From Verrucomicrobiota bacterium (lineage in GTDB: Bacteria > Verrucomicrobiota > Verrucomicrobiia > Opitutales > UBA2995): a stretch of DNA of 32,045 nt. The notes below the pieces were generated by a model, which saw only the letters and a list, made by a program, of their open reading frames with translations, did not search any database and was not told where the DNA came from. A program made the translations under genes and the position numbers. Position 1 is the first letter of the stretch, and the number at the start of each line of letters is the position of its first letter. The DNA is taken from contig JAQBYJ010000068.1 in NCBI GenBank assembly GCA_027622555.1, positions 1 to 32,045 of the forward strand. The letters are read 5' to 3'. Positions 5,105 through 24,548 of this stretch are shown piece by piece.

Positions 5105-5117
5105 ATAACTTTCGAAT

Positions 5118-6587: not shown

Positions 6588-6686
6588 AATTCTTCAACTC
6601 CTGATTTTAGTCATATCGAAAGAGCTCTATCCATCCCAATGCTTATTCCACTCTGCCAGGATTTACGGAGAGACACTTTTGGTCAA

Positions 6687-6800
6687 CTACGCCGGTTTCG
6701 GCAGTCGAATGGGGTCCGGCAGTCGACCGTTGAGCGGTAGTTTTTCGCCAAGTTCTCCGCGCATGGTTTCGAGGCGATTTCGAAGTTCGTCGCGTTTTGA
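6687..6800 (-). other. In-frame continuation after a sulfatase stop codon
   Basis: Immediately after the TAA of the sulfatase at 6801-8057, the same reading frame stays open for 37 codons and ends at TAG (6687-6689). It encodes a plausible helix plus tail (SKRDELRNRLETMRGELGEK, then a Pro/Leu/Arg-rich end). This composition fits a genuine sulfatase C-terminus much better than random sequence. The likeliest reading is a nonsense mutation that trimmed the protein; readthrough or a base error is possible. Confidence 0.7.
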
Positions 6801-8057: not shown

Positions 8058-8292
8058 ATCTGTTTATTATTCGATGAAATACAAAAAATAAGCAATCGAC
8101 TTTATGGAGCCTGAGTAAAATCAAGAACCTGAACGCCGCTCTGGCGTGAAGGCTTCGAAAAAGCAGTGTCTCCTTTCAGCTGTCTTTTGTCTCCTCACCC
8201 TACTTGTCTGGCGAAGGACTTGAGATAAGGCTACACCCTCAGCGGCCAGTCCGGAGGCCAGTCAAAGGGCTGTGTCGTTACAAAGCAAATCT

Positions 8293-8810
8293 CTATCCTC
8301 TAAACAGATTGCCTAACAGTTTTATAAGTTTTTTTGCCAGAGCCAGGAAGAATACGATTTGAATTCGGAACAAAGTAACAAACCAATCTCCCAGTTTCAT
8401 ATCGTAAGGACTGCGGATGCATCCGATCTGTTGAAGCCATACACGATCATTAAAATTAAATTGCTTCACAAGATTCAGCATTCGCTCGGGGTTATTTCTT
8501 GTATGGATGATAACCGGATCTCCAAAGATAAAATTTTCCCATGTTGAGAGAAAGTTGTATTCGCTGGGGAGTATTCCAAGTTTGATCTCATGCCTCAATT
8601 CTCAAAGCAATTTTCTCATGGTTGGTTGATCCCAGATTCTTGATCCGTAGGTCTGTTGCCAGGAAATCGATTGTTCAAATTCTTCATCCCAGGTTTCCAC
8701 TTTATTTTTCTAAGCGATTTTTATGAAGGCAACATGGTCGCTCTAAAATCCTGCAACCCTGATTATGAGGTCGAAGTCTCTGTCGAAGGCACGATCAATG
8801 ACAGCTGAGG
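8293..8810 (-). pseudogene. Probable decayed glycosyltransferase remnant
   Basis: On the minus strand, fragments in broken frames suggest one former gene: AVIDRAFDRDFDLIIRVAGF, then WDEEFEQSISWQQTYGSRIW, then an open stretch of about 100 codons containing LGILPSEYNFLSTW and PVIIHTRNN. The arrangement (bulky residues around LPSEYN, then VIIH) resembles the C-terminal part of nucleotide-diphospho-sugar transferase-like enzymes. Stops interrupt it, for example just before ELRHEIK. The resemblance is from memory and weak. The remaining parts of 8058-9227 show no intact gene. Confidence 0.4.
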
Positions 8811-9227
8811 CCCCGACCATGGCTGGCCCATGGGCTTGCCATTCCCTTAAAACTCTTTGTCGGAGTGGACTCCTTTAGCCCGGTCGCCGCAGGAAATCGC
8901 TGGGCATTTCAAGCCATTCGCCAGGAGCGCAACGACCCGACTGGAAACCGTCGCGTTTGGTCGACGCTCTTTCCCTTATTGGAGGAGAGTCCGAACGTCC
9001 ACGAACCCGATTCTTTTGGCTTTTTGGAATTTGTCGTCTAGTTGGCTTCCAAGACCATTAGTATTGGACAGACCGTTTTCAATTTTCACTTATAAACCAG
9101 GCCCTGACACCTTTTGCTTTTCGGCCCATTTTGCCTTCACATGCATAGACTTGCTTGCTTTGCATTTTTTTGAGTTACCGGTAACCGACGATCCTATTTC
9201 GGTCGTTGTTGATGATGTCTAAACTAT

Positions 9228-10823
9228 ATGAAATTAAAACTGGTGCCTTCCTCTCCCTTCTGGCTGGTTATTCCCCTTGTTGCGGGGCTCATTGCGTTCT
9301 TTTGGCTTGGCCGTGATTCTGCCTTGAATTTCTCCCGTCCGGGACTTCAACACGCATCCGATGCCGGCCGACAACCAGATGCAAATGACATCTTCCGTTA
9401 CACCCCACCCGTTAAAATCGACCGTTTGATCAATGAATGGGAAACTCAGGAGGCCTTGATCATTACGCTCTCGTTTCCTGAAGCCCGAGGGAATTCGGAA
9501 ATTGTCGTAAGTACCATCGATGTGCTCGAGGCAGCCCATGAATATCTGAATATCTATGTCTTTTGTGAGTATGAACACAGCCGGGAATTTGCCTATTTTC
9601 TCTCGAAGCTCAGAGAGCACCCCAAGGGGGAGGCCATTCTCGAAAAGACCCATTTTGTCGATTCGAGAAACTTGATGCGGTGGGTGCGGGACTTTGGCCC
9701 GGTCTTCGGTGTTGGCAGAAAGCAGGAGCTGGTGGCGATTGATTTCGTATTCCGAAATATGTTGAAAGATCTCGAATCGCTTGCAAGGCAGACGAACGAC
9801 GCTTTCAGGGACTTCATGGCCTTGCAGGGAGATGCCATGCCGGCAGACGTGGTGGCGATGATAGAAAGGGAGTTTGAAACCGAGGTGCAATTGATTCGTC
9901 CGCCTGTTTCCATGGATGGAGGCGATCTTATCAGTGACGGCCGAGGCAACGTCTTTATTTCTACTCAGACCCTGGCCCGAAACGGGACCAACAGACAGGA
10001 GCTGGAAAAAGTATTCCAGGAGTATTTCGGTGCAAAGAAACTTCATGTGCTGGAAGCGCTTCCGGGCGCGTCGGTTCGCCACCTGGACATGATTTTCAAG
10101 TTCATCGACCACGACACGGTGGTCCTTCCTGATTACAAAGTGGATGAAACGGCGACACTAAATTCCTACCGCAAGGAACTTACCCGGAAAGTCCTTTCGG
10201 TTCTGGAGAAAAATGAAGCGTACCTGCGCAAGAACTTTCCCAAACATACGTTCATAAAGGTCCCCATGCCCCCCATCCTGTTTTTGAGCAAGGAGGAGAT
10301 TTTTCACCTTACCCGTCAGGAGTTTTACCGCACTTTTGTAAAGGACAGGGATTTGCTGACGCCGGAAGAATTGGAAAAGCTTACTCCCGTACAACGCCAG
10401 AGGATGGAGGCCCAGATCTTGGAGATGGTCAAAAAAGAGACGGGCTTGGCCGATGTTGGGACCACGGACGGCTTCAATGCAATACTTGCTGTCTATGATC
10501 AGCCGCCCCTTGATTCGTTTTTGGACCTGGATGCGGAAGCGGTGACCCGATACCGCTCATATATCAACAGTGTGTTCCTTAACCCAAAAAGCGGGAAGCA
10601 GGCATTCCTTGTTCCCCGATTCTCCGGACAGAATGCACGGGAAAGTGCTCTGATCGATTCCTGGGAGAAAATGGTGGAATCCGCTTACCGGAGCGCCTAC
10701 CCCAAGGCTGATATCCGGTGGATTAATTCTGATTCGATGGTGGAAGATATGGGTTTTCTGCATTGCATTACGATCACCGTGCCCGCTCTGCCGTTGAATT
10801 CACGGCAATCGAGTGCGTTGTAG
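9228..10823 (+). CDS. Membrane-anchored agmatine/peptidylarginine deiminase-like protein
   Basis: A 531-residue protein of the guanidino-group-modifying superfamily (agmatine deiminase and Porphyromonas-type peptidylarginine deiminase). One N-terminal membrane segment (about 11-27) would place the enzyme outside the cytoplasmic membrane. All catalytic motifs are visible: WVRDFGP at 152-158 (Asp155), DGGD at 230-233, RHLDM with His285 and Asp287, and GFLHCIT with the nucleophile Cys513. It is much longer than a normal agmatine deiminase (about 350-370 residues), with a charged segment of over 100 residues between HLDM and the last motif. The predicted reaction converts a guanidino group to a ureido group and releases ammonia. 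Free agmatine versus peptidyl-arginine cannot be decided here. It stands alone, convergent with a protease gene. Confidence 0.82.
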   Translation: MKLKLVPSSPFWLVIPLVAGLIAFFWLGRDSALNFSRPGLQHASDAGRQPDANDIFRYTPPVKIDRLINEWETQEALIITLSFPEARGNSEIVVSTIDVLEAAHEYLNIYVFCEYEHSREFAYFLSKLREHPKGEAILEKTHFVDSRNLMRWVRDFGPVFGVGRKQELVAIDFVFRNMLKDLESLARQTNDAFRDFMALQGDAMPADVVAMIEREFETEVQLIRPPVSMDGGDLISDGRGNVFISTQTLARNGTNRQELEKVFQEYFGAKKLHVLEALPGASVRHLDMIFKFIDHDTVVLPDYKVDETATLNSYRKELTRKVLSVLEKNEAYLRKNFPKHTFIKVPMPPILFLSKEEIFHLTRQEFYRTFVKDRDLLTPEELEKLTPVQRQRMEAQILEMVKKETGLADVGTTDGFNAILAVYDQPPLDSFLDLDAEAVTRYRSYINSVFLNPKSGKQAFLVPRFSGQNARESALIDSWEKMVESAYRSAYPKADIRWINSDSMVEDMGFLHCITITVPALPLNSRQSSAL

Positions 10824-10869
10824 CGTTGGGAGAATTAATTTCACACCTAACAAGCGACTTCAGGTTTTG

Positions 10870-10931
10870 ACTTTTGATTAGAGGAGTATCGCTTATTTGG
10901 GCGATGCTTCGAAGAGGCGGCTACACTCCTG
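10870..10931. terminator. Possible bidirectional hairpin between convergent genes
   Basis: The short gap between two converging genes holds imperfect palindromic sequence: AGGAGT near 10881 pairs with ACTCCT near 10924, with an inner ATCGC...GCGAT stem. There is no long T tract. It could end transcription from both sides or be another dispersed repeat. Confidence 0.3.
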
Positions 10932-12092
10932 TCAAATGGAAGTGCTGTCTAGATAGATGGCGCTACCCAGATTCTGTAGAAGGTATTCGTAAGTGGCGAT
11001 CCCATACCCGGCTAATCCCCATTTTGTTCCATAGGAGTTTTTAAAGATAAAACGTATATCCTCGAGACGTCCACTTTCACAGGTGTAACCAACCAGTGTC
11101 ACTGCGTGAGAGTAACCTTCCCTTGGTTTTTGTTTGGAAAGGAAGTGGTCGTTGCCCAGGGTTCTCCAGGTTGGCCAGCCAATGCCAACCACCACCGGTT
11201 GATGCGCATTGAGAATCTTTAAAATATACTCGAGACTCGTGGCCGGATCGCGGGCGGCGATACTATAAGCTACAATTTTGCTCCGCTCACGCGCCTGTTT
11301 AACGATGTCATCGGGTGGAGGTTCAATGGCGTTCATTTCTTTACCAAAAGTGTTCGGCATTTCCTTTTGGGCTGGAATTCCATAAGAGCGGAGGGCCGAT
11401 ACCACTTCCATCAGGGCAAATCCCGCATCGGAAAAATCTGTTCCGTCTTCACTCGCTTGCATTTCCATTTTATCCAGACCAAGCGATTTTCGCGTTGCCC
11501 AAACCAGGTACTCTTCCGAGAGCTGAGTCGCCCGATTGTTGAGTCGTGCGTTTTGAATTTCCAAAGCGCTGACCACGGCAAAGACCGCACAACTGGGACG
11601 GAGGCCCTGGTTTTTGGATATGAGGGATAACTCTCGGATTCTGGGTCGAAGATCGGTCGATGGTTTCAACTCAAGCGGACTGTTTAACAGCTGCTGCAAA
11701 TCCGTTGCATTACGATTAGCCTGCTTTTTGGATTCCATCGATTGCAAGCGCTCGGCCCTCGCCTGATTCTGTTCTTGTGAGCGCTTATGCTGCTGCCGGA
11801 GGTAGGCCGCTGATTTTTCCGGATTGTATTCGAACGCTTTCTGAAGATCCGGCGACAAGTCAGAGAGTGAGATCTGGGTGATTCCCTTGGAGTGAAAAAT
11901 GGTGATCGATTCCGGAGTCACATTTCTAACCCTAACTTTATAAAATGAAGTTTGGCCGACCGTAAGTTTGTCGAATTCTAGAGGTCCCGGGATTTCGGAT
12001 TCGGCAGCTAAACTGGACAATCCCCCTAACCCAAGCATCAGAATGAATCCTACCGTCCGCAGACGGAGGAGTTGGAAGATTTTCAGATGCAT
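10932..12092 (-). CDS. Exported papain-like (C1) cysteine protease
   Basis: A C1-type cysteine protease of 386 residues if translation starts at 12092. An upstream ATG at 12134 would add 14 residues, but the hydrophobic signal peptide follows the internal Met (MHLKIFQLLRL) and ends near SLAAES. Numbered from the longer start, a beta-rich domain spans about 48-100, with the pattern FHSKGITQISLSDLSPDLQ followed by YNPEKSAAYL; I associate this module with Verrucomicrobiota proteins. A Gln/Arg-rich coil follows at about 112-150. The catalytic domain has NQGLRPSC (Gln176, Cys182, the papain spacing), SHAVTLVGY (His343) and KNSYGTKWGLAGYG (Asn366). All catalytic residues are present. The target is unknown; it may act on the cell's own exported proteins or on external protein. 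Confidence 0.85.
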   Translation of the reverse strand: MHLKIFQLLRLRTVGFILMLGLGGLSSLAAESEIPGPLEFDKLTVGQTSFYKVRVRNVTPESITIFHSKGITQISLSDLSPDLQKAFEYNPEKSAAYLRQQHKRSQEQNQARAERLQSMESKKQANRNATDLQQLLNSPLELKPSTDLRPRIRELSLISKNQGLRPSCAVFAVVSALEIQNARLNNRATQLSEEYLVWATRKSLGLDKMEMQASEDGTDFSDAGFALMEVVSALRSYGIPAQKEMPNTFGKEMNAIEPPPDDIVKQARERSKIVAYSIAARDPATSLEYILKILNAHQPVVVGIGWPTWRTLGNDHFLSKQKPREGYSHAVTLVGYTCESGRLEDIRFIFKNSYGTKWGLAGYGIATYEYLLQNLGSAIYLDSTSI

Positions 12093-12134
12093 TTCATGTG
12101 ATTTGAAATCAGTTAGCCGGAGCGATGCCAACAA

Positions 12135-12524
12135 AAGGCCTTAAATGAATCCAAGTTTGAGAATTCTTTTATAAATCGTGGCTAACGGATGTTATCCATC
12201 TTTATATACGCTGTAGCAAAAAGTCTAAGGCTAACCATGGAATTGACTTTTGTTGGGTTTAAAAGCCATAAAAGTATGTTTCCCAAATGAGAACAATCTT
12301 CCGCTCAAATCACATCACACCGAGATACTAATGACCCTAGTACATGCTTCTTTCCTTACATGTCACAGCGTGGCTCGTGCGCTAGTCGGAATACCCCCAC
12401 CTCGGCGGCTTGTCCTGAGCCCAGGTGAAGGGCTGCGCCGCAATATCGAGAAGCAGATGACAAGCCTAGTTGCAAACTGCCGTACGATTCGCAACGGACC
12501 GAGCGCTTTTTTTGAAACGAAGAC
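12135..12524. repeat. Gene-free interval with left copy of a flanking direct repeat
   Basis: No gene seen. At about 12391-12451 lies ACCCCCACCTC...CCTGAGCCCAGGTGAAGG followed by GCTGCGCCGCAATATCGAG. A diverged copy occurs at about 13317-13376, on the other side of the gene at 12525-13274. The central part resembles the common bacterial CCTGAGCCTGTCGAAGG short repeat. Confidence 0.5.
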
Positions 12525-13274
12525 ATGATACTTCGCCGCGTCATCGAACATTACAAGAAGCAGGAATGGACTGCGATCTGGATTGATTTCGTCATCGTCG
12601 TTGTGGGCGTCTTTATCGGATTGCAGGTCAACAACTGGAACGAGACGCGCACCGATCGGTTTCGCGAGGCGATCTATCTTGCAGGCGTTTCGACAGATGT
12701 CAGGAGCGACATCGTCGATATCGAGGAAATTATTCGCGTCTCGACCTCACGGATGTCCGCAATGACCTTCCTGCTTGAATGCGCATCGGGTTCAGCACTT
12801 CCCGACGGGTTTGACTCAGCGCGCGGTCGAATCGAGATCGAAAATGCGCCGCCCTATCAGGAAGATGATCCGAATTCGATCGGGATCGCACTATTCATTC
12901 TGACCACTTTCGAGGGCAACCGGCTCGTCTATGACACAATGATCAACACCGGCGGGATTGGCATCATTCGCAATGCAGAATTGCTTCGAGAAATTCAGAC
13001 CTATTATGCCCATGTTGACAAGGTCCTGCATTTCGAAACGCAACTGGAGGAAAACCGCGTCAAGCTTGTCGACGCGCAGCAACAATCTGGGATTTCTCCG
13101 GTCGACTTGTTGCCCGCCCGTGACCTCGCTCAGCGCTTTACGGAAGACCCGAGCCTTCTCGCTGCGGCGAAGAATTACTGGCTGTTCACCAACCGGCATC
13201 TCAAATTGATGAACGATTTGAAGCGGGACGCCGAAATGCTTGTGGCGGAGATTAAGAACGCGGACAAGGCATGA
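12525..13274 (+). CDS. Single-pass membrane protein, DUF6090-like, probably transferred
   Basis: A 249-residue protein with a short cytoplasmic N-terminus (MILRRVIEHYKKQEW), one membrane segment (about 20-36, IDFVIVVVGVFIGLQV) and the signature NNWNETR directly after it. The remainder is a mostly helical extracytoplasmic domain. This layout is that of the DUF6090-type family, whose function is unknown to me; the closest-looking forms I know are proteobacterial. Codon choice appears richer in GC-ending and CGC/GTC codons than its neighbours. The gene sits alone between two imperfect direct repeats, pointing to acquisition as a cassette. Transfer is inference. Confidence 0.7.
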   Translation: MILRRVIEHYKKQEWTAIWIDFVIVVVGVFIGLQVNNWNETRTDRFREAIYLAGVSTDVRSDIVDIEEIIRVSTSRMSAMTFLLECASGSALPDGFDSARGRIEIENAPPYQEDDPNSIGIALFILTTFEGNRLVYDTMINTGGIGIIRNAELLREIQTYYAHVDKVLHFETQLEENRVKLVDAQQQSGISPVDLLPARDLAQRFTEDPSLLAAAKNYWLFTNRHLKLMNDLKRDAEMLVAEIKNADKA

Positions 13275-13713
13275 TCTTACACCGTTCGTATGAAGGAGTG
13301 TCGAAAGAATTGCCATACCTCCCACCTCTGCGTCCTAACCTGAGCATGGATGAAAGGCTGCGCAGCTATATCGAGTCGTAGGCCATCTCCCGCCAAATAA
13401 AAAAAATCCGATTCGGGAGTTATATGTCGGAAGTATGTAGGATCAGCCCCGATTTTTAAGTATACCGATAACGAATTCCTCTGATTGAGATTTACCCACC
13501 GCCTTGGACCGGGCCATCTGTCTGATCGGTTTACCTGCGTTGCATCATGGGGAGCTTGCTGGAATCCGATCTGGGAAAAAAGTTGAAGATAGTCCGTTAC
13601 CTTTCGGAGAACTGGAACGTATTTCTATATCGCTTCTCTGACGTTAGCCTCCTATTGGTCTACTCTAAAATAGTTTACCCTAAATTTAATCCCTGCCACA
13701 CGCATTCCAAATC
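13275..13713. repeat. Gene-free interval with right copy of the flanking repeat
   Basis: The 13317-13376 segment (ACCTCCCACCTCTGCG, then CCTGAGCATGGATGAAAGG, then CTGCGCAGCTATATCGAG) matches the repeat near 12391-12451 at most positions. The rest, up to the sulfatase start at 13714, is AT-rich and probably carries that operon's promoter, but I cannot place a convincing -35/-10 pair. Confidence 0.5.
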
Positions 13714-15060
13714 ATGCATAGTCAAAACCGAAGAGATTTTTTAAAAACATCCGTTGCCGGTGCCATCGCCGCGGGTTTGAGTCCAGCAATCAGCCTGGGG
13801 CAGGAAGTTGCCCGGAAAAAGCCAAACGTGGTTATCCTGTTTATCGACGATCTCGGCTACGCCGATATCGCTTGTTTTGGAAACGATCGGGTTCCGACGT
13901 CCCACATCGATTCCCTGGCCGATAGGGGTGCCAGGTGCACGATGTCCTACATCACCAATCCGCCGTGTTCGCCCAGTCGCTGCAGCCTGATGACCGGCAT
14001 GTACGCACAGCGCTTTGGGAAGTCGGGAATGGCGCGCGGTCTGCCGATTCCCGAAGATCATCCGACTCTGGCGGAATTCATGCGGGACGCTGGTTATGTG
14101 ACCGGACAAGTGGGTAAATGGGATATCGGTGCCAACGGGCAAGGTCCGCATCAGCGCGGATTTATGGAAGTTGCCCGAAATGCGCCCGGCGATCAATACG
14201 ACCGCGAGCGTGAAGACGGTAGTTACGTTTACCTTACCGATCTCGATGGTGACTACATGGCTGAGTTCGTTGATCGAAATGCTGACAAACCCTTCTTCCT
14301 TTATTTTTCGCCCCTTGCTGTCCATTCGAAGGTTGCAAATACACCGCAGCATTACCGCGACCGCATCCCGGGCGGAAACGGCACGGCCTACGAGGGTGCG
14401 GTATTAGCCGTCGATGATGCAGTGGGAAAACTACTCGCTATGCTGAAGAAGCACGATCTGGAAGATGACACCCTTATCCTGTTCACCGGAGACAACGGCG
14501 CCAATAGAACAGAGGGCGGTAGTTCCGAGCCCTACCGCGGTGGAAAGAATAAGGACACCCAACAGGAAGGCTGGGTGCACACGCCCACCATCGTTACCTG
14601 GCCGAAAGTGGTGCCCGCCGGTACAACCTTCGAAGGAATGATCGGGACCATAGATTTTTATGCCACGGTCGCCGCTGCTGCTGGCAAACCCTTGCCCGCA
14701 CGTTGTGATGGTAAGAGCCTGTTGCCTTATCTTAAAGGTGATAAGAAAGGCGATGTGCATGAATACATCTTCTGGCACAATGCCGATCCTACGGATGAAC
14801 CTCGGCGCAACCTTTACGCCGTACGGTGGAAAGACTGGCGGCTGATCAAGCACCCCGATGGCTGGCATCTCTACGACCTGAAGAAGGATCCAAAGGAAAT
14901 GAAGGATCAGGCGGCGAAATATCCCGAGGTAGTGACCAATATGCGCAAACACTACGACGCCTTTGTTGCCACACTACCGCCATTAAAGCCTAGTGCAGAT
15001 TTCAAGGGCGGTGGTCAGGTGCCCAAGGGTTGGGGCTGGGAAATTGGTAATGGGGGTTAA
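13714..15060 (+). CDS. Tat-type S1 sulfatase, first gene of the central cluster
   Basis: A 448-residue sulfatase. The N-terminus has NRRDFLKTSVAGAIAAG, a twin-arginine export signal. The metal site is FIDDLGYADIACFG at about 43-56. The formylglycine motif is C85-S-P-S-R89, the standard form. GKWDIGA replaces GKWHLG. FTGDNGANRTEGG provides later metal ligands. The C-terminus ends in VPKGWGWEIGNGG, the stretch that is also recognisable in the decayed copy at 1880-2322. It opens a run of five same-strand genes ending at 20501, so it probably helps remove sulfate from the glycan that the cluster attacks. Confidence 0.94.
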   Translation: MHSQNRRDFLKTSVAGAIAAGLSPAISLGQEVARKKPNVVILFIDDLGYADIACFGNDRVPTSHIDSLADRGARCTMSYITNPPCSPSRCSLMTGMYAQRFGKSGMARGLPIPEDHPTLAEFMRDAGYVTGQVGKWDIGANGQGPHQRGFMEVARNAPGDQYDREREDGSYVYLTDLDGDYMAEFVDRNADKPFFLYFSPLAVHSKVANTPQHYRDRIPGGNGTAYEGAVLAVDDAVGKLLAMLKKHDLEDDTLILFTGDNGANRTEGGSSEPYRGGKNKDTQQEGWVHTPTIVTWPKVVPAGTTFEGMIGTIDFYATVAAAAGKPLPARCDGKSLLPYLKGDKKGDVHEYIFWHNADPTDEPRRNLYAVRWKDWRLIKHPDGWHLYDLKKDPKEMKDQAAKYPEVVTNMRKHYDAFVATLPPLKPSADFKGGGQVPKGWGWEIGNGG

Positions 15061-15155
15061 CAATCCATTCAGGAGGAATAACTGCCTATCTCAAAATTAT
15101 GAGAACTGTCTGAGAAAAGTCGTGAATTTCTACAGAACAATTTATTTCTAAAAGC

Positions 15156-16454
15156 ATGTTACGTTTACTAGCGATTGTTTGCTTATCCGGTTGTGGAGCT
15201 GTTGGGCTAATTGCTCAGAATAATCAAAACTTATTAAAGCCTTATTCCGGTCCTTCTGTGGCAGGTGTCGATGTGAGCACGTTGGACAACAAAGTGATGG
15301 CAGGCTACCAGGGCTGGTTTAATACCCCTGACGATGGGGCAGACCTCGGCTGGACTCACTGGTCAAGAAGCAAGGACAAACTTTTTGGGCCAGGCAATGT
15401 GACCGTAGATTTGTGGCCGGATGTGTCTGAGTACGACGAAGACGAACTTTTCGAAACAGGATTTCACTTTGATGACGGTAGCGCCGCCAAGGTTTTTAGT
15501 TCGCATAACCGAAAGACCGTGTTGCGCCATTTCCAATGGATGAAGGATTACGGGATCGACGGCGTTTTTGTTCAACGCTTTGCGAACGGGCTGAGAAGCG
15601 AATCGATGAAGTATCACAAAGATGTGGTGCTTTCTCATGCACGTGAAGGAGCGAATCGCAATGGCCGGACCTATGCGGTGATGTATGACCTGAGTGGCTT
15701 ACCCAAAGGAGGTACGCGCTCTGTTCGTGACGATTGGAAATTGCTGCGAAGTAAGAGGAAGATCACGGAAGACCCGGCCTACCTTCACCATGAAGGTAAC
15801 CCGGTGGTTACGGTGTGGGGCGTCGGTTTTAATGACCAAAGTAAACCCAGGGAATACACAATCGCTGAGTGCCGTGATCTCGTTGAATTTCTAAAGCAGG
15901 ATGGTTGCACGGTGATGTTGGGTGTACCCACGGGTTGGCGGACACTGGATCGCGATGCATTACCAGATCCGGAGCTGCATGAAGTTGTTGAAATGGCGGA
16001 CATCATCAGTCCCTGGACCCCCGGGCGCTATCGAGATTTGAACGGAATTACCAAGCATGCGGACGCCTATTGGGTCCCCGATAATGAATGGTGTCACGAA
16101 AAAGAACTAGATTACCTGCCAGTTGTTTTTCCCGGCTTCAGTTGGCATAACTTGAAAGGTGCCGAGTTGGGCGCGATCCCCAGACTGAAAGGCCAGTTTT
16201 TCTGGTCGCAAATCGCTGCCGCGAAACGCGGGGGTTCAAACATGATCTATGTGGCCATGTTTGACGAAGTGGGCGAAGGAACGGCTATTTTTAAATGCAC
16301 CAACAATCCGCCTCGGGCAGATGGCACCCCATTTCTTGATTATGAAGGATTGCCAAGTGATTTTTACCTTCAACTTGCTGGACATGCTGGAAAACTCTTG
16401 AGAGGAGAAATTCCATTGAGCGAAATAATTCCGGAATCCGTCACCAAAAACTAA
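15156..16454 (+). CDS. GH71/GH99-like glycosidase, likely lipoprotein
   Basis: A 432-residue protein resembling the bacterial GH71/GH99-related glycosidases, often annotated xylosidase/arabinosidase or endo-alpha-mannosidase-like. The short hydrophobic N-terminus has a lipobox-like LSGC (Cys13), so attachment to a membrane is likely. Family-type motifs are VMAGYQGWFNTP (about 48-59), GIDGVFVQRF, TYAVMYDLSG, and an acidic YVAMFDEVGEGTAIFK near the C-terminus that probably carries catalytic carboxylates. The fold is expected to be a TIM barrel. It lies 95 bases after a sulfatase and 81 before an oxidoreductase gene. It is the only clear glycan-cleaving enzyme in the window, so it is the best pointer to the cluster's target. 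The substrate linkage is uncertain. Confidence 0.75.
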   Translation: MLRLLAIVCLSGCGAVGLIAQNNQNLLKPYSGPSVAGVDVSTLDNKVMAGYQGWFNTPDDGADLGWTHWSRSKDKLFGPGNVTVDLWPDVSEYDEDELFETGFHFDDGSAAKVFSSHNRKTVLRHFQWMKDYGIDGVFVQRFANGLRSESMKYHKDVVLSHAREGANRNGRTYAVMYDLSGLPKGGTRSVRDDWKLLRSKRKITEDPAYLHHEGNPVVTVWGVGFNDQSKPREYTIAECRDLVEFLKQDGCTVMLGVPTGWRTLDRDALPDPELHEVVEMADIISPWTPGRYRDLNGITKHADAYWVPDNEWCHEKELDYLPVVFPGFSWHNLKGAELGAIPRLKGQFFWSQIAAAKRGGSNMIYVAMFDEVGEGTAIFKCTNNPPRADGTPFLDYEGLPSDFYLQLAGHAGKLLRGEIPLSEIIPESVTKN

Positions 16455-16535
16455 ATTGCTAACGTTTCTAATACTCATTGGTCTCACGATCAATGCTACT
16501 TCTCGAAGTTTTTCCAAATAACACTCCAAGTACCT

Positions 16536-18335
16536 ATGCCTTCGATTTCTGTTTCCCAAAAAAAAGCTGAGTACGACGTCGCGATCGTCGGCTCGGGTGC
16601 TGGCGGTGGCCAGATGGCCTACACGCTGACTCTGGCTGGGTTAAAGTGCGTCATGCTTGAAGCTGGCCGCTCTTACGATCCCGTTTCGGAGACTCCCATG
16701 TTTCAAACGGCCTATCACGCTCCGCTTGGCGGTGTTTCCACGCCGGACAAGGACATGGGTTTTTGGGACTCCACGGTTGATGGCGGTTGGGAGGTTCCAG
16801 GTGAGCCTTACACGCAAGCGAGCACGAACAAGGATCAGGAGTTTACCTGGTGGCGAGCCCGCATGATGGGAGGCCGGACCAATCATTGGGGACGCATCTC
16901 ACTGCGCAACGGTCCTTACGATTTTAAAGGACGCAGTCGCGATGGTCTGGGGTTTGACTGGCCGATTACCTATGACGAAATCAAGGCTTACTACGACAAG
17001 GTGGAAATGCTGATTGGGGTGTACGGCACGAATGAAGGCATGGAAAATACGCCCGATTCGTCTCCCGGTGTTTTACAGCCACCTCCGAAAGGAAGGGTGG
17101 GTGATTTGATGACTCAGAAGGCCGGTAAAAAAGTCGATGTTCCAGTCATCCCGATTCATCGGGCAGTGCTTACACGTCCCCTCGATGCTGGCACGATTCC
17201 GGCCAAGCTGCATCCCGGTAATACAAAAGCTCAAAAGATTGTTGGCGATGCCATGCGCGCTCGCGCCGCCTGTTTCTGGGCAACACCTTGTGGTCGCGGT
17301 TGCAGCATTGGGGCTAATTATCAAAGTACCACCGTTCACCTGCCACCGGCTTTAGCCACCGGTAACCTGGACATCATTCCGAACGCCCATGCTCGCGAAG
17401 TCTTGATCGGAAAAAATGGAAAAGCCACTGGAGTGTTGTTTGTCGATAAAACCACAGGTAAGGAGGAACGGGTGAATGCGAAAGCCGTAGTGCTTGCCGC
17501 CAGCAGTGGAGAATCGGTTCGCATTTTGCTAAATTCGAAGAGCAATCAATTCCCCGAAGGAGTGGCGAATAGTAGTGGTCTTGTCGGAAAGTATATTATG
17601 GATACAGTGGGTTCGAGCCTCAGTGGACAAATACCTGCTTTGGAAAATCTGCCACCTCACAACGACGATGGGGCGGGGGGGAGTCACTTTTACAGTCCGT
17701 GGTGGTTGTATAAGGAGCAGCTGGCCGGAAAGCTGGATTTTGCTCGTGGTTACCATATTGAAATTGGAGGAACGCGCAGCATGCCGGGTGGCAACAGTCC
17801 GGTGCCCAGTGAGTATACGCGTGGGCTTTATGGAACAAAACTCAAGGAAGAGGCTCGGCGTTACTACGGGTCCTTTATAGGACTGGCCTGTCGCGGTGAA
17901 ATGATTCCGAATGAAAACTCCTTTGCCGAGTTGGATCCGACCGTAAAGGACAAATGGGGTATTCCTGTGCTTCGATGGCATTGGAAGTGGACCGATCACG
18001 AACTCAACATGGCCATGCATGCAGAGCGCACATTTGCTTCCATGATTGAAGCGATGGGCGGCAACGTTCGTGGAACTCCTGCCAAGACCGGTTTGGATAT
18101 CATTCGACCTGGAGGCAATGTGAAGCACGAAGTGGGTGGCGCCCGGATGGGGGACAATCCCAAGGATTCTGTTTGTAATTCCCTGAATCAAACCTGGGAC
18201 GTGAACAACCTGTTTCTTACCGATGCGGCTCCCTTTGTAACCAACGCCGACAAGAACCCGACGCTGAGTATCATGGCATTTTCCTGGCGCTGCGCGGATC
18301 ACATCATTGAACAAGCCAGACAAGGTAACCTTTAG
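16536..18335 (+). CDS. GMC-family FAD oxidoreductase, large subunit
   Basis: A 599-residue glucose-methanol-choline oxidoreductase. The FAD-binding Rossmann motif VAIVGSGAGGG is at 15-25, ending in MLEAGR at 40-45. The family motif MMGGRTNHWGR lies near residue 115. The C-terminal FAD/substrate region has HEVGGARMG and then NLFLTDAAPF and NPTLSIMAFSWR. It has no signal peptide of its own; the partner encoded 10 bases downstream carries a Tat signal, so the folded complex could be exported by hitchhiking, as known for related gluconate and sorbitol/fructose dehydrogenases. It would oxidise a sugar or sugar alcohol and pass electrons to a quinone or cytochrome. The substrate is unknown. Confidence 0.9.
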   Translation: MPSISVSQKKAEYDVAIVGSGAGGGQMAYTLTLAGLKCVMLEAGRSYDPVSETPMFQTAYHAPLGGVSTPDKDMGFWDSTVDGGWEVPGEPYTQASTNKDQEFTWWRARMMGGRTNHWGRISLRNGPYDFKGRSRDGLGFDWPITYDEIKAYYDKVEMLIGVYGTNEGMENTPDSSPGVLQPPPKGRVGDLMTQKAGKKVDVPVIPIHRAVLTRPLDAGTIPAKLHPGNTKAQKIVGDAMRARAACFWATPCGRGCSIGANYQSTTVHLPPALATGNLDIIPNAHAREVLIGKNGKATGVLFVDKTTGKEERVNAKAVVLAASSGESVRILLNSKSNQFPEGVANSSGLVGKYIMDTVGSSLSGQIPALENLPPHNDDGAGGSHFYSPWWLYKEQLAGKLDFARGYHIEIGGTRSMPGGNSPVPSEYTRGLYGTKLKEEARRYYGSFIGLACRGEMIPNENSFAELDPTVKDKWGIPVLRWHWKWTDHELNMAMHAERTFASMIEAMGGNVRGTPAKTGLDIIRPGGNVKHEVGGARMGDNPKDSVCNSLNQTWDVNNLFLTDAAPFVTNADKNPTLSIMAFSWRCADHIIEQARQGNL

Positions 18336-18345
18336 CTCTTACACC

Positions 18346-19005
18346 ATGGAAACACACGAATCACTTCCACGCCTTTCCCGCCGCGATGTTCTTAAATGGT
18401 TTGCCGCCGCCGCTGCCGCTTCTCAGGCAACCCCGTTCCTGGCTTTCTCCCAGGATTCTGCTCCCGATGCGGTCGGCTACGGTAAGGATCCCCAGTTGAA
18501 TCAAATCTATAAGCGTGGTGACTTTTGGCCACTGACGCTTTCATCGAAACAACGTAAGGCAGTGACGGCCCTGGCGGATGTTATTCTTCCGGCAGATGAT
18601 CTCGGTCCTTCGGCCAGTCAGTTACGCGTGCCCGATTTTATCGATGAATGGGTGAGCGCGCCTTACGCCAAACAACAACAAGACAGAAAGACGGTCTTGT
18701 CGGGACTCAAATGGATCGACGAAGAATCGAACCGACTCTTCACAAAGAATTTTTCGGAGCTGAATATAAAGCAGCAGCAATCGATTTGCGACGTGCTGTG
18801 TAAACAGGATCATCAGGACTCAAAGCTCAAGCAAGCAGCCTCATTCTTTCGTACCTTTACCTCACTTTCAATGGGTGCCTACTACAGTACTCCAGAAGGT
18901 TGGAAAGCGATCGGCTATACCGGAAATATTCCATCGCCGACCTTCGCCGGACCACCCCGGGAAGTGCTGACTAAGCTCGGTCTGGAACAAACGGTTAAAA
19001 CATAA
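18346..19005 (+). CDS. Gluconate 2-dehydrogenase subunit 3-like protein, Tat signal
   Basis: A 219-residue small subunit from the start at 18346. An in-frame ATG at 18307 lies inside the upstream gene and is less likely. LSRRDVLKWFAAAAAA is a twin-arginine signal. The body matches the gluconate-2-dehydrogenase-subunit-3 type: LTLSSKQRKAVTALADVILPADD, followed by a helical middle and a C-terminal GYYST-like segment (GAYYSTPEGWKAIGYTGN). Such subunits accompany GMC oxidoreductases and supply the export signal. It follows the GMC gene by 10 bases and precedes a sulfatase by 11, so the three are almost certainly one transcript. No heme motif is seen in it. Confidence 0.88.
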   Translation: METHESLPRLSRRDVLKWFAAAAAASQATPFLAFSQDSAPDAVGYGKDPQLNQIYKRGDFWPLTLSSKQRKAVTALADVILPADDLGPSASQLRVPDFIDEWVSAPYAKQQQDRKTVLSGLKWIDEESNRLFTKNFSELNIKQQQSICDVLCKQDHQDSKLKQAASFFRTFTSLSMGAYYSTPEGWKAIGYTGNIPSPTFAGPPREVLTKLGLEQTVKT

Positions 19006-19016
19006 ATACAAATTAA

Positions 19017-20501
19017 ATGACTTCTAATAACATATTTCTTCCAGCCCTTTTTGCTCTGTGTTTTTTTGGATGTGTAAACGTGTTTTCTCAATCTCGACCA
19101 AATGTGCTGTTCATCGTCTGCGACGATTTGAATACCCATGTTTCGACCTCGGATTACCCGTATATTTCGACGCCGGCCTTCGATGAGTTGGCAGAGAGAG
19201 GCATGACCTTCAAGCGAGCCTACTGTCAGTATCCGGTTTGTGGACCTTCGCGTGCTTCCTTCCTGAGCGGTCTGTATCCGGAATCAACAGGTGTCACCAA
19301 CAACACCGACGACATTCGTGATAAAAGACCGGGTACGATGACCATGCCTCAGGCTTTCAGGGAGCAAGGTTATTGGACCGCTGCTACCGGGAAAGTATTT
19401 CACAACTCCACAATCGATCCCGGAGAAGCCGTCTGGGATGAGAAAACCTTTTTTGAGAACGATGAAATGCCGTTGGAGAAGCAGGCGCGTAAAGAATTTG
19501 AGGCGAAGCATGGATCGATTGAAGAACGAAAGAACCGCCAGCTCTGGAAAAACTTTCTGCTCAAGTATGCGCCACAAACCATGAACCAGACTCCGGGGTG
19601 GGGGCCTTCCGGGCTGACCGATGAACAACATAGAGATGGGAAAAATGCAGCGCAGGCGAAAGACTGGATTGAAAACAAAAGTTATGGTGACAAGCCCTTC
19701 TTTATGGCGGTTGGGATACACAAACCGCATATCCCCTTCCTTGCGCCCGACAAATACTTCGATATGTATCCGAAGGAGGAATTAAAGTATGTGAAGACGC
19801 CGTCCAATTTTTGGGATACCGTTCCGATGGCGGCGATTTCCAAACGCTATGAAGGATTCGGGTTCGAGTTTGCTGTTGAGAACGATGCGCTTCGTCGCGA
19901 ATACATGCAGGCCTACCATGCCTGTATTAGTTTTATCGATGCGCAGATCGGACAGATATTTGACAGCCTTAAAGCTAACGGACTCTGGGAAAATACCATC
20001 GTGGTTCTTACCTCCGATCACGGATACCATCTCGGCGAACATTTTATTTGGGGGAAGGTTACTCTCTTTGAAATCTGCAACCGCGTGCCTCTCATTATCC
20101 GGGTTCCTGGCCAAACGAAACCTGGTTCTGCTAGCCAAGGTCTTGTCGAGCTTGTCGATCTCTTTCCAACTTTGGCAGAACTGTGTAAGGTTAAGACTCC
20201 CGAAGATATTCAAGGGCGTAGCTTGATACCGAATTTCAAGGATCCTAATGCTCCGGGTAAGAAAGTTGCCTATACCGTGGTGACTCGAGGAAAGACTTTG
20301 GGAAAAGCCATTCGAACCGATCGTTGGCGCTACGCGCTCTGGCCTGATGGCGGGGAGGAGCTCTACGATTTGGAAAATGACATTGAAGAGCATCGTAACC
20401 TGGTTTCTTCAAAGGACCATTCGGCCACTTTGGCTGACATGCGAAAAAACATGGCGAGGGCGGTGGTCACAGCTGTGTCGAAGCGGAATTTTAAACTGTA
20501 G
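19017..20501 (+). CDS. Iduronate-2-sulfatase-like S1 sulfatase
   Basis: A 494-residue sulfatase resembling the iduronate-2-sulfatase branch. The signal peptide is at 1-25, with Cys15 and Cys19 in its hydrophobic core but no proper lipobox. The metal site is FIVCDDLNTHV at about 32-42. The formylglycine motif is C75-G-P-S-R79, preceded by YCQYPV as in that branch. AATGKVFHNS, GIHKPHIPFLAP, LTSDHGYHLGEH and WGKVTLFE are further hallmarks. It probably removes a 2-O-sulfate from a uronic acid or related sugar. It is last in the tight GMC, small subunit, sulfatase run. Its TAG stop lies inside the left arm of the inverted repeat at 20497-20566, so the repeat has evidently inserted at, or supplied, the end of the gene. 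Confidence 0.93.
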   Translation: MTSNNIFLPALFALCFFGCVNVFSQSRPNVLFIVCDDLNTHVSTSDYPYISTPAFDELAERGMTFKRAYCQYPVCGPSRASFLSGLYPESTGVTNNTDDIRDKRPGTMTMPQAFREQGYWTAATGKVFHNSTIDPGEAVWDEKTFFENDEMPLEKQARKEFEAKHGSIEERKNRQLWKNFLLKYAPQTMNQTPGWGPSGLTDEQHRDGKNAAQAKDWIENKSYGDKPFFMAVGIHKPHIPFLAPDKYFDMYPKEELKYVKTPSNFWDTVPMAAISKRYEGFGFEFAVENDALRREYMQAYHACISFIDAQIGQIFDSLKANGLWENTIVVLTSDHGYHLGEHFIWGKVTLFEICNRVPLIIRVPGQTKPGSASQGLVELVDLFPTLAELCKVKTPEDIQGRSLIPNFKDPNAPGKKVAYTVVTRGKTLGKAIRTDRWRYALWPDGGEELYDLENDIEEHRNLVSSKDHSATLADMRKNMARAVVTAVSKRNFKL

Positions 20502-20566
20502 GAGCAAATTTATTCGCGACCCTTATATTTGTCTAGTTCCAGGTCGCGAACAAGTTTGCTCCTACA
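20497..20566. repeat. REP-like inverted repeat at operon end
   Basis: Two 25-base arms, 20497-20521 and 20542-20566, are reverse complements at all but about two positions and are separated by 20 bases. Arm sequence type is TGTAGGAGCAAA...TTCGCGACC, the same class as at 102-171. The left arm includes the TAG stop of the sulfatase. Such a hairpin can stabilise mRNA ends or stop transcription; there is no T tract. Confidence 0.75.
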
Positions 20567-20701
20567 GTTGTGGAATCGAAATTCATGAGTAGAAGTTTGC
20601 ATACCTGCCCTGAACTTATCGAAGTGGCTGGTGAATGTATATTTTCGGCACCGTCTAAGCCGAATGAACTTTAACAGACAGTTGAAGCGTTTATATACAC
20701 A

Positions 20702-20741
20702 CGCTGAACCGCTGAACCGCTGAACCGCTGAACCGCTGAAT
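20702..20741. repeat. Five tandem copies of an octamer
   Basis: The unit CGCTGAAC is repeated five times without a break, the last ending in T instead of C. A nearby GAACTCAGCGGT could pair with a unit. The 20502-20822 interval otherwise contains the REP-like hairpin and no gene. The array lies about 80 bases upstream of the next gene, where copy-number change could alter expression. Confidence 0.85.
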
Positions 20742-20822
20742 TATTTCCTTCAACTTCGCCTTGAACTCAGCGGTCGGCTTCGCCTAAATTAATTTGGTGA
20801 AATCCGAAGTGAAAGTTTCCTT

Positions 20823-21500
20823 ATGAAGATACCAAAGTCCGCCCTCTCGATTTTAGTAGCTTGGATTGTTGTCTTTATTTTATCATTTGTGCTGCCGCGG
20901 TTTACCGTAACCGGAGGCGATGGATTTACGCGGGGATTGGATCGAGTTGGTGCCTTTTTCATGTGGCAACTGGCGGCGGTGTTTCTTTCCGTGATCTTGG
21001 CACTTGTTGCCTGGAGTAGAATGAGATCCCGTCCAGGATTGAAGTGGCTCTTTTCCGTTCCGCTGATGCTTCACATGGTTCTCGTTATATTTGTGATTGG
21101 TGTATTCGTAATGGCAAATTTCAGAAAGCCTCCAGCTTCCTATTATGAACCACCGGTCACCGCTACTCCAACCGCGACTGGTCCGATCGCAGAAGCTGTG
21201 CCCGCAACTACCCCGGTTGCGCCGAGTTCTGAACAACCAACTATTGGCCAAAACGTTCAGACCTACATGGGTATTTACAAAAGTGGATTTGAAATGAATC
21301 ACTTTTATACAATGGAAGGGCAGGGTCCCTGGTGGCTCGAATCAACCGACGAACTCCACGAGAAATTACAATCTTTCTATGTAGAGCGACCAGGGCGTGG
21401 GGGCGGAGTTACGGTTGCGATGACCGTTAGTGCCTACACAAGCGACATTGGATCAGGGTTCAATCATCTCGCACCGATCGAAAAAAGATCCACCTCGTAA
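20823..21500 (+). CDS. Three-segment membrane protein with frameshifted C-terminal domain
   Basis: The open frame gives 225 residues. Three membrane segments lie at about 8-26, 47-65 and 77-98. A Pro/Thr/Ala-rich linker follows (about 104-140), then a beta-type domain with YMGIYKSGFEMNHFY and GPWWLESTDELHEKL. That pattern (GxYxxGFExxxF...WWL) is one I recognise from many bacterial lipoprotein domains of unknown role. The frame ends abruptly after six A residues at 21481-21486. Reading one base back there restores KIHLVTIDSVRELSLEEFDQ and more, to a stop at 21574, giving 250 residues and a natural domain end. It is either a recent mutation, a base-calling error, or slippage on the A run. Function unknown. 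Confidence 0.7.
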   Translation: MKIPKSALSILVAWIVVFILSFVLPRFTVTGGDGFTRGLDRVGAFFMWQLAAVFLSVILALVAWSRMRSRPGLKWLFSVPLMLHMVLVIFVIGVFVMANFRKPPASYYEPPVTATPTATGPIAEAVPATTPVAPSSEQPTIGQNVQTYMGIYKSGFEMNHFYTMEGQGPWWLESTDELHEKLQSFYVERPGRGGGVTVAMTVSAYTSDIGSGFNHLAPIEKRSTS

Positions 21501-21574
21501 CGATTGATTCCGTACGCGAACTGAGCCTTGAAGAGTTCGATCAGGTTTTAGCGACGGTTAAGAAATACCCTTAG
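21501..21574 (+). other. Out-of-frame C-terminal tail of the preceding gene
   Basis: After a one-base backward shift at the A6 run (21481-21486), codons AAG ATC CAC and so on stay open to TAG at 21572-21574, giving 28 residues from IHLVTIDSVRELSLEEF to VKKYP. The strand pattern continues the domain upstream of the shift, which argues that this tail belonged to the gene. Confidence 0.7.
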
Positions 21575-21667
21575 CTAATTCTGTGTAACCCGTCGGTGGC
21601 CAGTTAAGGACACAAAGTCCTCCGTAAATGGTCCATCCGATTTCTGTATTTTCTGAAAGTGGAAGTA

Positions 21668-21934
21668 ATACCAAATTTGATTTCAAATGATAAAATGGCA
21701 AAAAGGCTTTTTCGACATGAGCAAGGCTGCTGTGCTTGGTTGGGCCAAGGCCCTGACAAGCTCAGGGAACGCCGTACATGCCCCCAAACCTTCTGTCCCA
21801 TAGGGATGCGTTCATTGTGGAAGTTCGCAGCGTTCCGTCAGCCGGGCAGTATCTGGATACAATCCGGCTGACGCGCCTTGCGCTGCTTCCAGAATGAGCT
21901 GCACGATATGATCATTTCAAATCGAATTTGATAT
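21668..21934. mobile_element. 267-bp element with 24-bp terminal inverted repeats
   Basis: Termini 21668-21691 and 21911-21934 are reverse complements at 21 of 24 positions (ATACCAAATTTGATTTCAAATGAT type). Inside lies a perfect 9-base stem, GTCAGCCGG at 21837-21845 with CCGGCTGAC at 21864-21872. It encodes no protein that I can support, so a non-autonomous (MITE-like) element is likely. The rest of 21575-22400 shows no gene. Confidence 0.55.
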
Positions 21935-22417
21935 AAGGTCAGATTCCAGACAAGAGTTGCAGGACCGGTAAGGAAACCGGACGCCGGGCATGAGCTTCCG
22001 TGGGAACAGTCCTGGCAATACCGGTTTCGCAAAATTACAAATTTTTCCTCAGTCGGATGTGATTGTTTTTCACTTCGTTGGCGATCAAGACCTCGGTACA
22101 GTGGATGTCAGAAACGAAAGAATCGCCAAAGTTTAGGAGACAGCCAACTGATCAAGTAAAAGTTGAATAATTGCGAAGGAATGTGTGTGAATGTCTTCTG
22201 ATTGACTAGGCGCGCGGACAAATGAAAATACGAAAAACAATTACATATTAACATATAACAGTATTATGTGGCCAGTATGATAAAGCACAGATCATCGGAG
22301 ATGCCCGTTATACTTCGAGCGGGCCTAAAAAATTAATGACACGTAAAGTACCCGGTATTGTACCAGTATGCGGGGCAGAAAGTTTAAGGATCTCGATGGA
22401 AAACTGGACGGTATTAG

Positions 22418-22927
22418 GTGGATTTTATGCACGGGTTCGATCTGGACCAGTTGTCCGAAAGGTATGGAAAATGGAATAGCGTGTGGCGTTGGTTCAGCCG
22501 CATCTGCCGGAGCGGACTGTGGACTGAATTGCTCCGGATGATAGCCGCCGGGTACCCTGATCTGGCCCACCGAATAATGATCAATGCTTCTCATGTGAAG
22601 GCTCATCAGGATTCGACCCGATCGACCCTCAGCTCCGAAGAACAGAGGCTTGGCAAGACCTAGAAAGGCCGTAACACCAAGATTAGCGCTTGCGTAAACG
22701 CCTTGGGCAAGGCGCGACCTCAATGACTCTTGTTTGCGGCAATGAACGCGACCGCAAGAAGCTTCGATGCGGTTCTGCCCAAAGACTGTTCGGGCGTCCA
22801 AATATTAGCGGATAAAGCCTACGCGACGGCATCCGCCAAACTATTCTTGTTGTGGGAGGCATCGCGGTGATCCCTCCGAAGAAAAACCGCAAAGGCGACA
22901 TCCCCTATGTCCGCGAACTGGGAAAAC
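22418..22927 (+). pseudogene. IS5-family transposase remnant
   Basis: Broken frames still spell a DDE transposase in the order of IS5-family enzymes: WILCTGS, LSERYGKWNSVWRWFSRICR, IMINASHVKAHQD (the first catalytic acidic residue now reads Asn, where relatives have IMIDASHVKAH), GRNTKISACVNALGKA, ILADKAYATASA (second Asp) and VIPPKKNRKGDIPYVRELGK. Stops occur after LGKT near 22661 and elsewhere, and frames change at least twice. The coding remnant ends exactly where the second element is inserted at 22934; I find no continuation beyond 23690. It is dead as an enzyme. Confidence 0.85.
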
Positions 22928-22955
22928 TAAATAGGGCTTCCTGAAAAAGTCCGAC

Positions 22956-23393
22956 TCAGGCAGCGAGAGGTGATTCCTTCAGGTTGTGCTGTAAGAGGAT
23001 TCGGACAAGTCTTGGAAGCGCCGAACTCAATGGGCGTTTGTTTGACGGTGTAACGAGAGTAATGAGGCACTCCGCGCACTGGATTTTGAGCCAACAAAGA
23101 ACCTCACCGAAACGACTGCGAAAATGAACCATCATCGACGGATCAAGCAACCACTCCTGCCGGTATTCGCACAGTCCCCAAAAGTATTGCAGGTAAGGGG
23201 TCTCCGCGATCTGTTCGACGGTTTCCTCGTCGGTCACTCGCAGGCGTTCCTTGATCATGAGCGTTCCGAAGGCGATTCGTCCGCTCTTCGCAGGGGCTCC
23301 CATTCCCGTTCCTTCAAGGCTTTGACTGTAACACGCTTCGACTTCACCCCACGGAACCAGGGCCACTAGCTTTACCCAACGGTTGGAGGACAA
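22956..23393 (-). pseudogene. Truncated DUF772-type transposase (IS1182/IS5-like)
   Basis: The open stretch gives 145 residues. It matches the N-terminal DUF772-type domain of IS1182/ISNCY-like transposases: SSNRWVKLVALVPWGEVE, GRIAFGTLMIKERLRVTDEE, TVEQIAETPYLQYFWGL, and LDPSMMVHFRSRFGE. The coding sense may extend upstream into FGGKLL before the annotated Met. After FRSRFGE the sequence switches to material that runs straight to the end of the element, so the catalytic DDE part has been deleted. It could still bind DNA ends but cannot transpose. Confidence 0.8.
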
Positions 23394-23415
23394 CAGCTTG
23401 CCTCCGAAGGGCAGG

Positions 23416-23530
23416 TATACTGCCGCGCATCAAGAATTGCGTTTTTTGGACCATTGTTAGTATCGATACGTGGTGCTATTCCTGTGTTTCGGCGAAACTG
23501 CCTCTTCAAAACATGATGCGCGGCAGTATA
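23416..23530. repeat. 115-bp segment with perfect 17-bp inverted termini
   Basis: TATACTGCCGCGCATCA at 23416-23432 is the exact reverse complement of 23514-23530, with 81 bases between. It lies just upstream of the truncated transposase's start, inside the deleted insertion sequence. It looks like a MITE-type insertion or a long regulatory hairpin. A second perfect inverted pair, AGGTGCACGGA and TCCGTGCACCT, lies nearby at about 23576-23619. Confidence 0.65.
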
Positions 23531-23812
23531 GAAATCAGCGTATTCTATTTGATCAGGGTCATTTCGATACATGGCAGGTGCACGGATTTGAAGGCTAATA
23601 CTAATAATTCCGTGCACCTAAGCCACCAAAAGGTGACTGATTTCTCACGTTTTTCAAGGACTACCTAGTTTTTCAGGAAACTCTAAATAACACCGGGTTT
23701 GTCTTTTCCCGCTTTTACTTTATATCTGCCCGGTTAGATTCCAGTCTCAAATTATAGGTGGGTAAACTTGTTTTACAGATAATGGAGAAAGTCGCCGGTT
23801 CAGCGAAGGGAA

Positions 23813-23838
23813 GGTTTCTTGGGTACGCCCAAGAAATC
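23813..23838. terminator. Strong 11-bp hairpin with TACG loop
   Basis: GGTTTCTTGGG, loop TACG, CCCAAGAAATC: nine perfect base pairs plus one G-T and one G-C pair. UNCG-type loops are unusually stable in RNA. There is no following T tract. It lies about 100 bases before the next gene and could act in its leader or as a leftover element end. Confidence 0.4.
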
Positions 23839-23935
23839 AAACTAAGGGTGCTTGTAATTTATGCTAATTTGGAGATATGTCTTAAATCTGGATTCAGGAC
23901 ACTGTAGAATCCAAGTAAGAAGGTTGGAAAAATAA

Positions 23936-24352
23936 TTGTTATACATGCACATCGATATTCGGAGGATAAAGTTTAGGAAATTAGATATTCGCAATTTGGA
24001 CCTTCGAAAAACCGCTATTAGTTTAGCCGTCGGCCTTTTGGGTGTCGCGATCGTATCGCTCCCATTGATGGGATCTACGTTTCATCTGGATGCAATAGAT
24101 ACTGAAAATCGTCTTCCTTACCTGAGAATTCTTTTACTTTCCTCAGGAGTCTTTACCATTGGTTTGGCATTGATAATTTTTTCAATCAACCTGATGAAGA
24201 AGATTATTTGGGGAAGCCTTGTAGCACTTTTGTTTGTTGGATTTGCACTGGGTTGTTTTGCTTTGGGATTTTTTCTGAAATGTTTCCTAATAGTGATCGT
24301 AGCCTTAATGGCTGTCGCCTGGGAGATTGGAAAATTCGATGTAGAGTATTAA
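23936..24352 (+). CDS. Small integral membrane protein of unknown function
   Basis: A 138-residue protein, or 135 from the second ATG at 23945. The N-terminus is basic with a short repeating pattern (DIRRIKFRKLDIRNLDLRK). It is followed by three to four hydrophobic segments at about 26-45, 64-84, 87-103 and 108-128. The C-terminus is short and acidic (GKFDVEY). No family recognised. Its coding character is supported by the clean hydrophobic periodicity and the positive-inside N-terminus. It is flanked by mobile-element debris upstream and converges with the VOC gene. A small inverted repeat TTCCCT/AGGGAA at about 24508-24523 may serve as a shared terminator. Confidence 0.6.
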   Translation: MLYMHIDIRRIKFRKLDIRNLDLRKTAISLAVGLLGVAIVSLPLMGSTFHLDAIDTENRLPYLRILLLSSGVFTIGLALIIFSINLMKKIIWGSLVALLFVGFALGCFALGFFLKCFLIVIVALMAVAWEIGKFDVEY

Positions 24353-24548
24353 CTCAACATGCGGGATTGCCATTATCGGTTTGAATTCCGCTTGGAAATG
24401 GATTTAAGACTGCTTCTCTTTAAAGACAGCCAACGCGGCGGGAGTAAAACAGCGAAACACGTTAAAGAAATATTTGGCCCTATTTCTTCATGGCACCGCA
24501 ATCTGTTCCCTTCTTAGGGAATTGTATTTTCTATGTTCGTCGCTGAAC

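What the first reader, a model, noticed from the sequence alone, without database searches (positions are those of the whole stretch)
20823..21574. One-base frameshift at an A6 run restores a conserved-looking domain end
The six A residues at 21481-21486, followed by G, form A-AAA-AAG. A one-base backward slip after the AAA codon gives KKIHLVTIDSVREL and 23 further residues, completing the GxYxxGFExxxF/WWL domain. Homopolymer slippage by ribosome or polymerase could produce both 225- and 250-residue products, or the gene has lost one A.
Basis: seen in the sequence. Interest (0 to 1): 0.5.

Follow-up and report, generated by a model that had tools for sequence, protein, structure and literature searches.

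The report
Membrane-protein gene broken near its end
A small membrane-protein gene in an Opitutales-related genome falls out of frame at a run of six A bases just before its end, most likely through an ordinary one-base loss in a dispensable gene beside an already truncated neighbour, not a programmed frameshift.

Summary
ORF 20823-21500 (225 aa) leaves its ancestral frame at the A6 run 21481-21486. The -1 frame continues to a stop at 21572-21574, giving 250 residues, with 16 residues after KKIHLVTIDSVREL rather than the 23 stated. An intact same-genus relative (54% identical, 229 aa) continues as the shifted frame does (14 of 27 identical); a degenerate copy in G237 and a remote relative in G716 also run through the junction that way. 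The recoding reading is poorly supported: A-AAA-AAG is out of phase with the gene (codons GAA AAA AGA), the relative has no A run, downstream RNA folds no better than shuffles (z -0.23), and A6 is short for transcriptional slippage. The gene is confirmed in only 2 of 6 same-genus genomes and is broken or shortened in all three more distant genomes where it was found. Its neighbour, an arylsulfotransferase complete in 4 of 6 same-genus genomes, survives here as about 35 codons, followed by transposon remnants. Best explanation: a recent one-base deletion in a dispensable gene. An assembly error cannot be excluded without reads. Ordinary; low interest.

The parts
20823..21500 (+). ORF as read in frame 0, 225 aa: N-terminal hydrophobic part (three helices in the model of the relative), Pro-rich linker, C-terminal domain GIYKSGFEMNHF...GPWWLES...GFNHLAPI, then a foreign end (RSTS) and stop
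   Evidence: 54% identity to L002; three helices 5-27, 34-66, 71-100 of P0001 modelled with block pLDDT 65-83
21481..21486 (+). A6 run where the ancestral frame is lost
   Evidence: homology in frame +3 ends at 21479 and resumes in frame +2 at 21485
21485..21574 (+). ancestral end of the gene, now in the -1 frame: KIHLVTIDSVRELSLEEFDQVLATVKKYP and stop
   Evidence: 14 of 27 residues identical to L002; differences by codon position 10/4/18
21579..21677 (-). remnant of an arylsulfotransferase: last 33 residues of a reading frame of 568, 70% identical
   Evidence: one search puts it at 21582-21686; full-length orthologues in 4 of 6 same-genus genomes
22932..23685 (.). transposon remnant with DUF772 transposase fragment (22956-23393, minus) between 17-nt inverted arms 22932-22948 and 23669-23685

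Best explanation
A recent one-base deletion in a run of A, by replication slippage, put the last 29 codons of a dispensable membrane-protein gene out of frame. The gene belongs to a small, patchily distributed family: a hydrophobic N-terminal part, a Pro-rich linker and a small C-terminal domain. As read in frame 0 it makes a 225-residue protein that lacks the last conserved strand-like segment (KIHLVTID) and the segment after it. Shown: the frame change, its place, the homology of the shifted end, and the truncated neighbour. Inferred: that the change is in the organism's DNA, that it is recent, and that function is lost or weakened.
For: The shifted frame matches the intact relative, a degenerate copy in G237 and a remote domain relative in G716 through the junction. 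The relative reads GGAACAAAGATT there, so no A run is conserved. The gene is confirmed in 2 of 6 same-genus genomes and degenerate or shortened in G237 (TAG plus frame change), G290 (57-residue piece) and G305 (N-terminal part only). The neighbouring arylsulfotransferase is a remnant here but complete in 4 of 6 same-genus genomes, with transposon remnants beyond. PMC3711429 (passages) says singletons near a 3' end are more likely indel mutations than errors, compared with other locations. No second copy in the genome.
Against: No reads, so an assembly error is not excluded; the same paper expects BLASTp-validated singletons in general to be sequencing errors. The out-of-frame tail shows no clear decay yet (dN 0.33 against 0.22 for the rest of the domain and 0.34 for the whole body; only 27 codons), which a recent deletion, an error, or continued use of the tail would all explain.
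Confidence: 0.62

Rival explanations
1. Assembly or consensus error: the organism's gene is intact and the draft contig lacks one base of the run.
For: Draft genome of 238 contigs. The tail shows no clear sign of decay. PMC3711429 (passages) expects singleton frameshifts with BLASTp support to be sequencing errors.
Against: Of 43 homopolymer runs of 6 or more in the window, 32 lie in the 22 ORFs I listed and 31 of those are in the other ORFs, which stay open (not each ORF was checked against a family). The neighbour is independently truncated, which is no base-call error.
Confidence: 0.26
2. The 225-residue form is a working protein with a new short end; the lost tail is not needed.
For: 187 codons upstream of the break align with the relative (103 identical residues) and stay open; the shift removes 29 of 250 residues.
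Against: The tail is conserved in the intact relative, and the segment at the junction has a counterpart in a remote relative (REFKLISIKNI), so it is probably part of the domain fold. The structure model of the domain was too poor to test this (pLDDT under 50).
Confidence: 0.08
3. Recoding: ribosomal -1 slippage or transcriptional insertion at the A run makes both the 225- and the 250-residue product.
For: A Lys tRNA on AAA could re-pair one base back; slippage of a single peptidyl-tRNA-Lys is described (PMC9307594, passages). Transcriptional insertions in A runs occur and rise with run length (PMC5574713, passages).
Against: In the gene's phase the heptamer is A AAA AGA, so the second tRNA would have to re-pair from AGA to AAG. 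No downstream fold above shuffles (z -0.23, 81 of 200 shuffles as good). The run is absent from the relative. Six A is short (PMC1088944, passages).
Confidence: 0.04

Closest known systems
Homopolymer-indel pseudogenes (singleton fs-genes of PMC3711429)
   Same: Single frame change at an A run near the 3' end, homologue in one frame, no conserved slippery site
   Different: Nothing notable; the reads are not available
dnaX-type programmed -1 frameshift (A AAA AAG with stimulators)
   Same: The letters AAAAAAG occur
   Different: Phase is wrong, no downstream hairpin above shuffles, not conserved in the relative, and the shifted product is the ancestral full-length one
Transcriptional slippage at A9 (Thermus dnaX, IS elements; PMC1088944)
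   Same: A run of A in the coding strand; one inserted base would give the -1 frame
   Different: Six A instead of about nine; not conserved

Membership tests
dnaX-type programmed -1 ribosomal frameshift | Slippery heptamer X XXY YYZ in the phase of the 0 frame | tested here: not met
   0-frame codons GAA AAA AGA; A AAA AAG is in phase with the shifted frame. The X XXY YYZ rule is recalled
dnaX-type programmed -1 ribosomal frameshift | Downstream stimulatory hairpin | tested here: not met
   21488-21580 folds at z -0.23, 81 of 200 shuffles at least as stable
dnaX-type programmed -1 ribosomal frameshift | Shift site conserved in homologues | tested here: not met
   The only intact close relative reads one frame throughout, without an A run
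dnaX-type programmed -1 ribosomal frameshift | Both products made | not testable with these tools
   needs mass spectrometry or a reporter
Transcriptional slippage gene | Run of about nine A or T | tested here: not met
   six A; length of nine from PMC1088944
Indel-broken gene (pseudogene) | Homologous protein continues in another frame after a single break | tested here: met
Indel-broken gene (pseudogene) | Indel present in the organism's DNA | not testable with these tools
   no reads and no second assembly of the species at hand
Indel-broken gene (pseudogene) | Relaxed constraint on the lost part | tested here: inconclusive
   27 codons, differences 10/4/18 by codon position: no clear decay yet

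The most novel reading that the evidence does not exclude
Low-level single-tRNA -1 slippage on GAA AAA AGA (Lys tRNA in the P site, AGA waiting in the A site), or a one-base insertion during transcription, still makes some full-length protein from the broken gene, so the deletion is tolerated as a leaky switch between two C-termini.
Probability: 0.04. Interest if true: 0.35.

Novelty: new member of a known kind. Interest (0 to 1): 0.08.

Why it matters
Little beyond annotation: the gene should be marked as frameshifted, not as a 225-residue protein with a true end, and it should not be cited as a recoding case. The locus is a small example of gene decay beside transposon remnants.

Tried and rejected
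Programmed -1 frameshifting: rejected on phase, fold and lack of conservation. Transcriptional slippage: run too short and not conserved. Identification by family library: Pfam and NCBIfam gave nothing above a curated cut-off for the window protein, the intact relative or its C-terminal domain; no solved structure matched by sequence. Structure prediction of P0001 on a four-row alignment: only the N-terminal helices were usable; residues 102-223 were under pLDDT 50, so the claim that the tail completes the domain fold was not tested by structure and no fold search was made. Weak matches in G003 (L003) and in G253 (L009) were read as chance: L003's match crosses stops and lies inside a 668-codon ORF of another frame, and L009's crosses stops. 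The match in G030 (L004) and those in G748 and G794 (L037, L039) were not inspected. A literature search for indels in metagenome-assembled genomes found no paper with all six terms. A promoter and terminator scan of 20500-21800 gave nothing above shuffles.

Papers: only passages found by term search were seen of PMC1088944, PMC5574713, PMC3711429 and PMC9307594; the others appeared only in search listings.

Full report
What was checked. The window is the whole of contig C68 of a 238-contig, 6.0 Mb draft genome. ORF 20823-21500 reads 225 residues in frame 0 and ends ...FNHLAPIEKRSTS. At 21480 the codons are GAA AAA AGA. The six A at 21481-21486 and the following G are there as described. The -1 frame is free of stops from 21431 to 21571 and stops at 21572-21574; body (221) plus tail (29) makes 250 residues.

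Homologues. Among 36 genomes (window's own included) searched with the 225-residue protein, 4 had a match at E 0.01 or better: the window itself, G004 (same genus, E 1e-60, 54% identity) and two weak ones. The weak one in G003 is chance by its context; the one in G030 was not inspected. The G004 gene is intact, 229 residues, and ends ...FNHLAPIGTKIHVVSINSIRSLSEDEFGQLLEAIQK. A scan of genome contigs with the two-row alignment returned one locus, the same stretch, titled an uncultured Opitutales bacterium MAG contig, CALGUT010000823.1; the first scan with the window protein alone returned none.

Tblastn of the relative's protein against the window gives frame +3 up to 21479 and frame +2 from 21485 (14 of 27 identical, E 2e-4), which pins the frame change to the A run. 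Searching 384 genomes of the class with the relative's protein found 5 with a match, and 372 of the order with the alignment found 5. Besides G000 and G004, three hold pieces of this gene. G237 (one contig) has an in-frame TAG and a change of frame, and its C-terminal part runs through the junction as the shifted frame does (KWLHIVPIESFRGHSLKAFEQV). G290 has only a 57-residue N-terminal piece. G305 has only the N-terminal part. The fifth match, G253, crosses stops and was read as chance.

With the C-terminal domain alone, 5 of 387 genomes of the phylum matched. Apart from G000 and G237 these are weak (E 0.002-0.008). One, G716, is a 234-residue protein whose stretch GFEQNEF...WWI...GYGHFSAYKREFKLISIKNI aligns across the junction with the relative (79 aligned columns, 25% identity). 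So the domain's own end is the shifted one. G748 and G794 were not inspected.

Why it is not recoding. The -1 heptamer must be in phase with the gene (recalled rule). Here the in-phase heptamer is A AAA AGA, and A AAA AAG is in phase only with the frame after the shift. The relative has GGA ACA AAG ATT at that place, no A run. The 93 bases after the run fold no better than shuffles (z -0.23). A run of nine is where selection against slippage becomes evident in a large proportion of bacterial genomes (PMC1088944, passages), though insertions also occur in shorter runs and rise exponentially with length (PMC5574713, passages). Single-tRNA slippage remains possible at low level (PMC9307594, passages).

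Why a real deletion is preferred to an error. The gene is dispensable by distribution: confirmed in 2 of 6 same-genus genomes, window's own included (G002 is only 75% complete), and decayed or shortened in all three more distant genomes where it was found. The next gene on the other strand, an arylsulfotransferase (Pfam PF05935 in G004), is complete in G001, G002, G004 and G005 but survives here only as its last 33-35 residues at 21579-21686. Beyond it lies a DUF772 transposase fragment between 17-nt inverted arms. In G004 a gene with weak DUF1569/DinB matches below Pfam's cut-offs lies between the two; tblastn of the G004 frames found no trace of it in the window. Against this, no reads are at hand, the tail still looks constrained (differences 10/4/18 by codon position), and PMC3711429 (passages) expects BLASTp-validated singletons to be sequencing errors in general, while noting that those near a 3' end are more likely true indels than those elsewhere. 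I put a real deletion at 0.62 and an error at 0.26.

Function of the protein. Unknown by family libraries and by sequence against solved structures. The model of the relative supports three N-terminal helices only; the C-terminal domain was modelled with pLDDT under 50. My inference is a membrane-anchored protein with a small C-terminal domain outside the membrane.

Noticed in passing
window 22050-22145: A dispersed repeat of about 85 bases with ten further matches in the own genome (80-88% identity over 47-86 bases, similar edges in most) and none in the five other same-genus genomes. No Rfam match in 20400-24500.
   Followed up: partly
window 20702-20740: An 8-base tandem repeat (CTGAACCG units) between the sulfatase and this gene, with 92% identical stretches on contigs C11 and C18.
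   Followed up: no
window 23416-23530: An inverted repeat with 24-nt arms (23416-23439 and 23507-23530, 88% complementary) inside the transposon remnant.
   Followed up: no
window 3389-20501: Sulfatase genes on the same contig, among them 3389-5104 and 19017-20501 (Pfam Sulfatase); several other ORFs look like sulfatases by eye but were not scanned.
   Followed up: no
window 21836-21873: A hairpin-like inverted repeat of 18-nt arms with 2 nt between them (83% complementary) in the degraded stretch after the arylsulfotransferase remnant.
   Followed up: no
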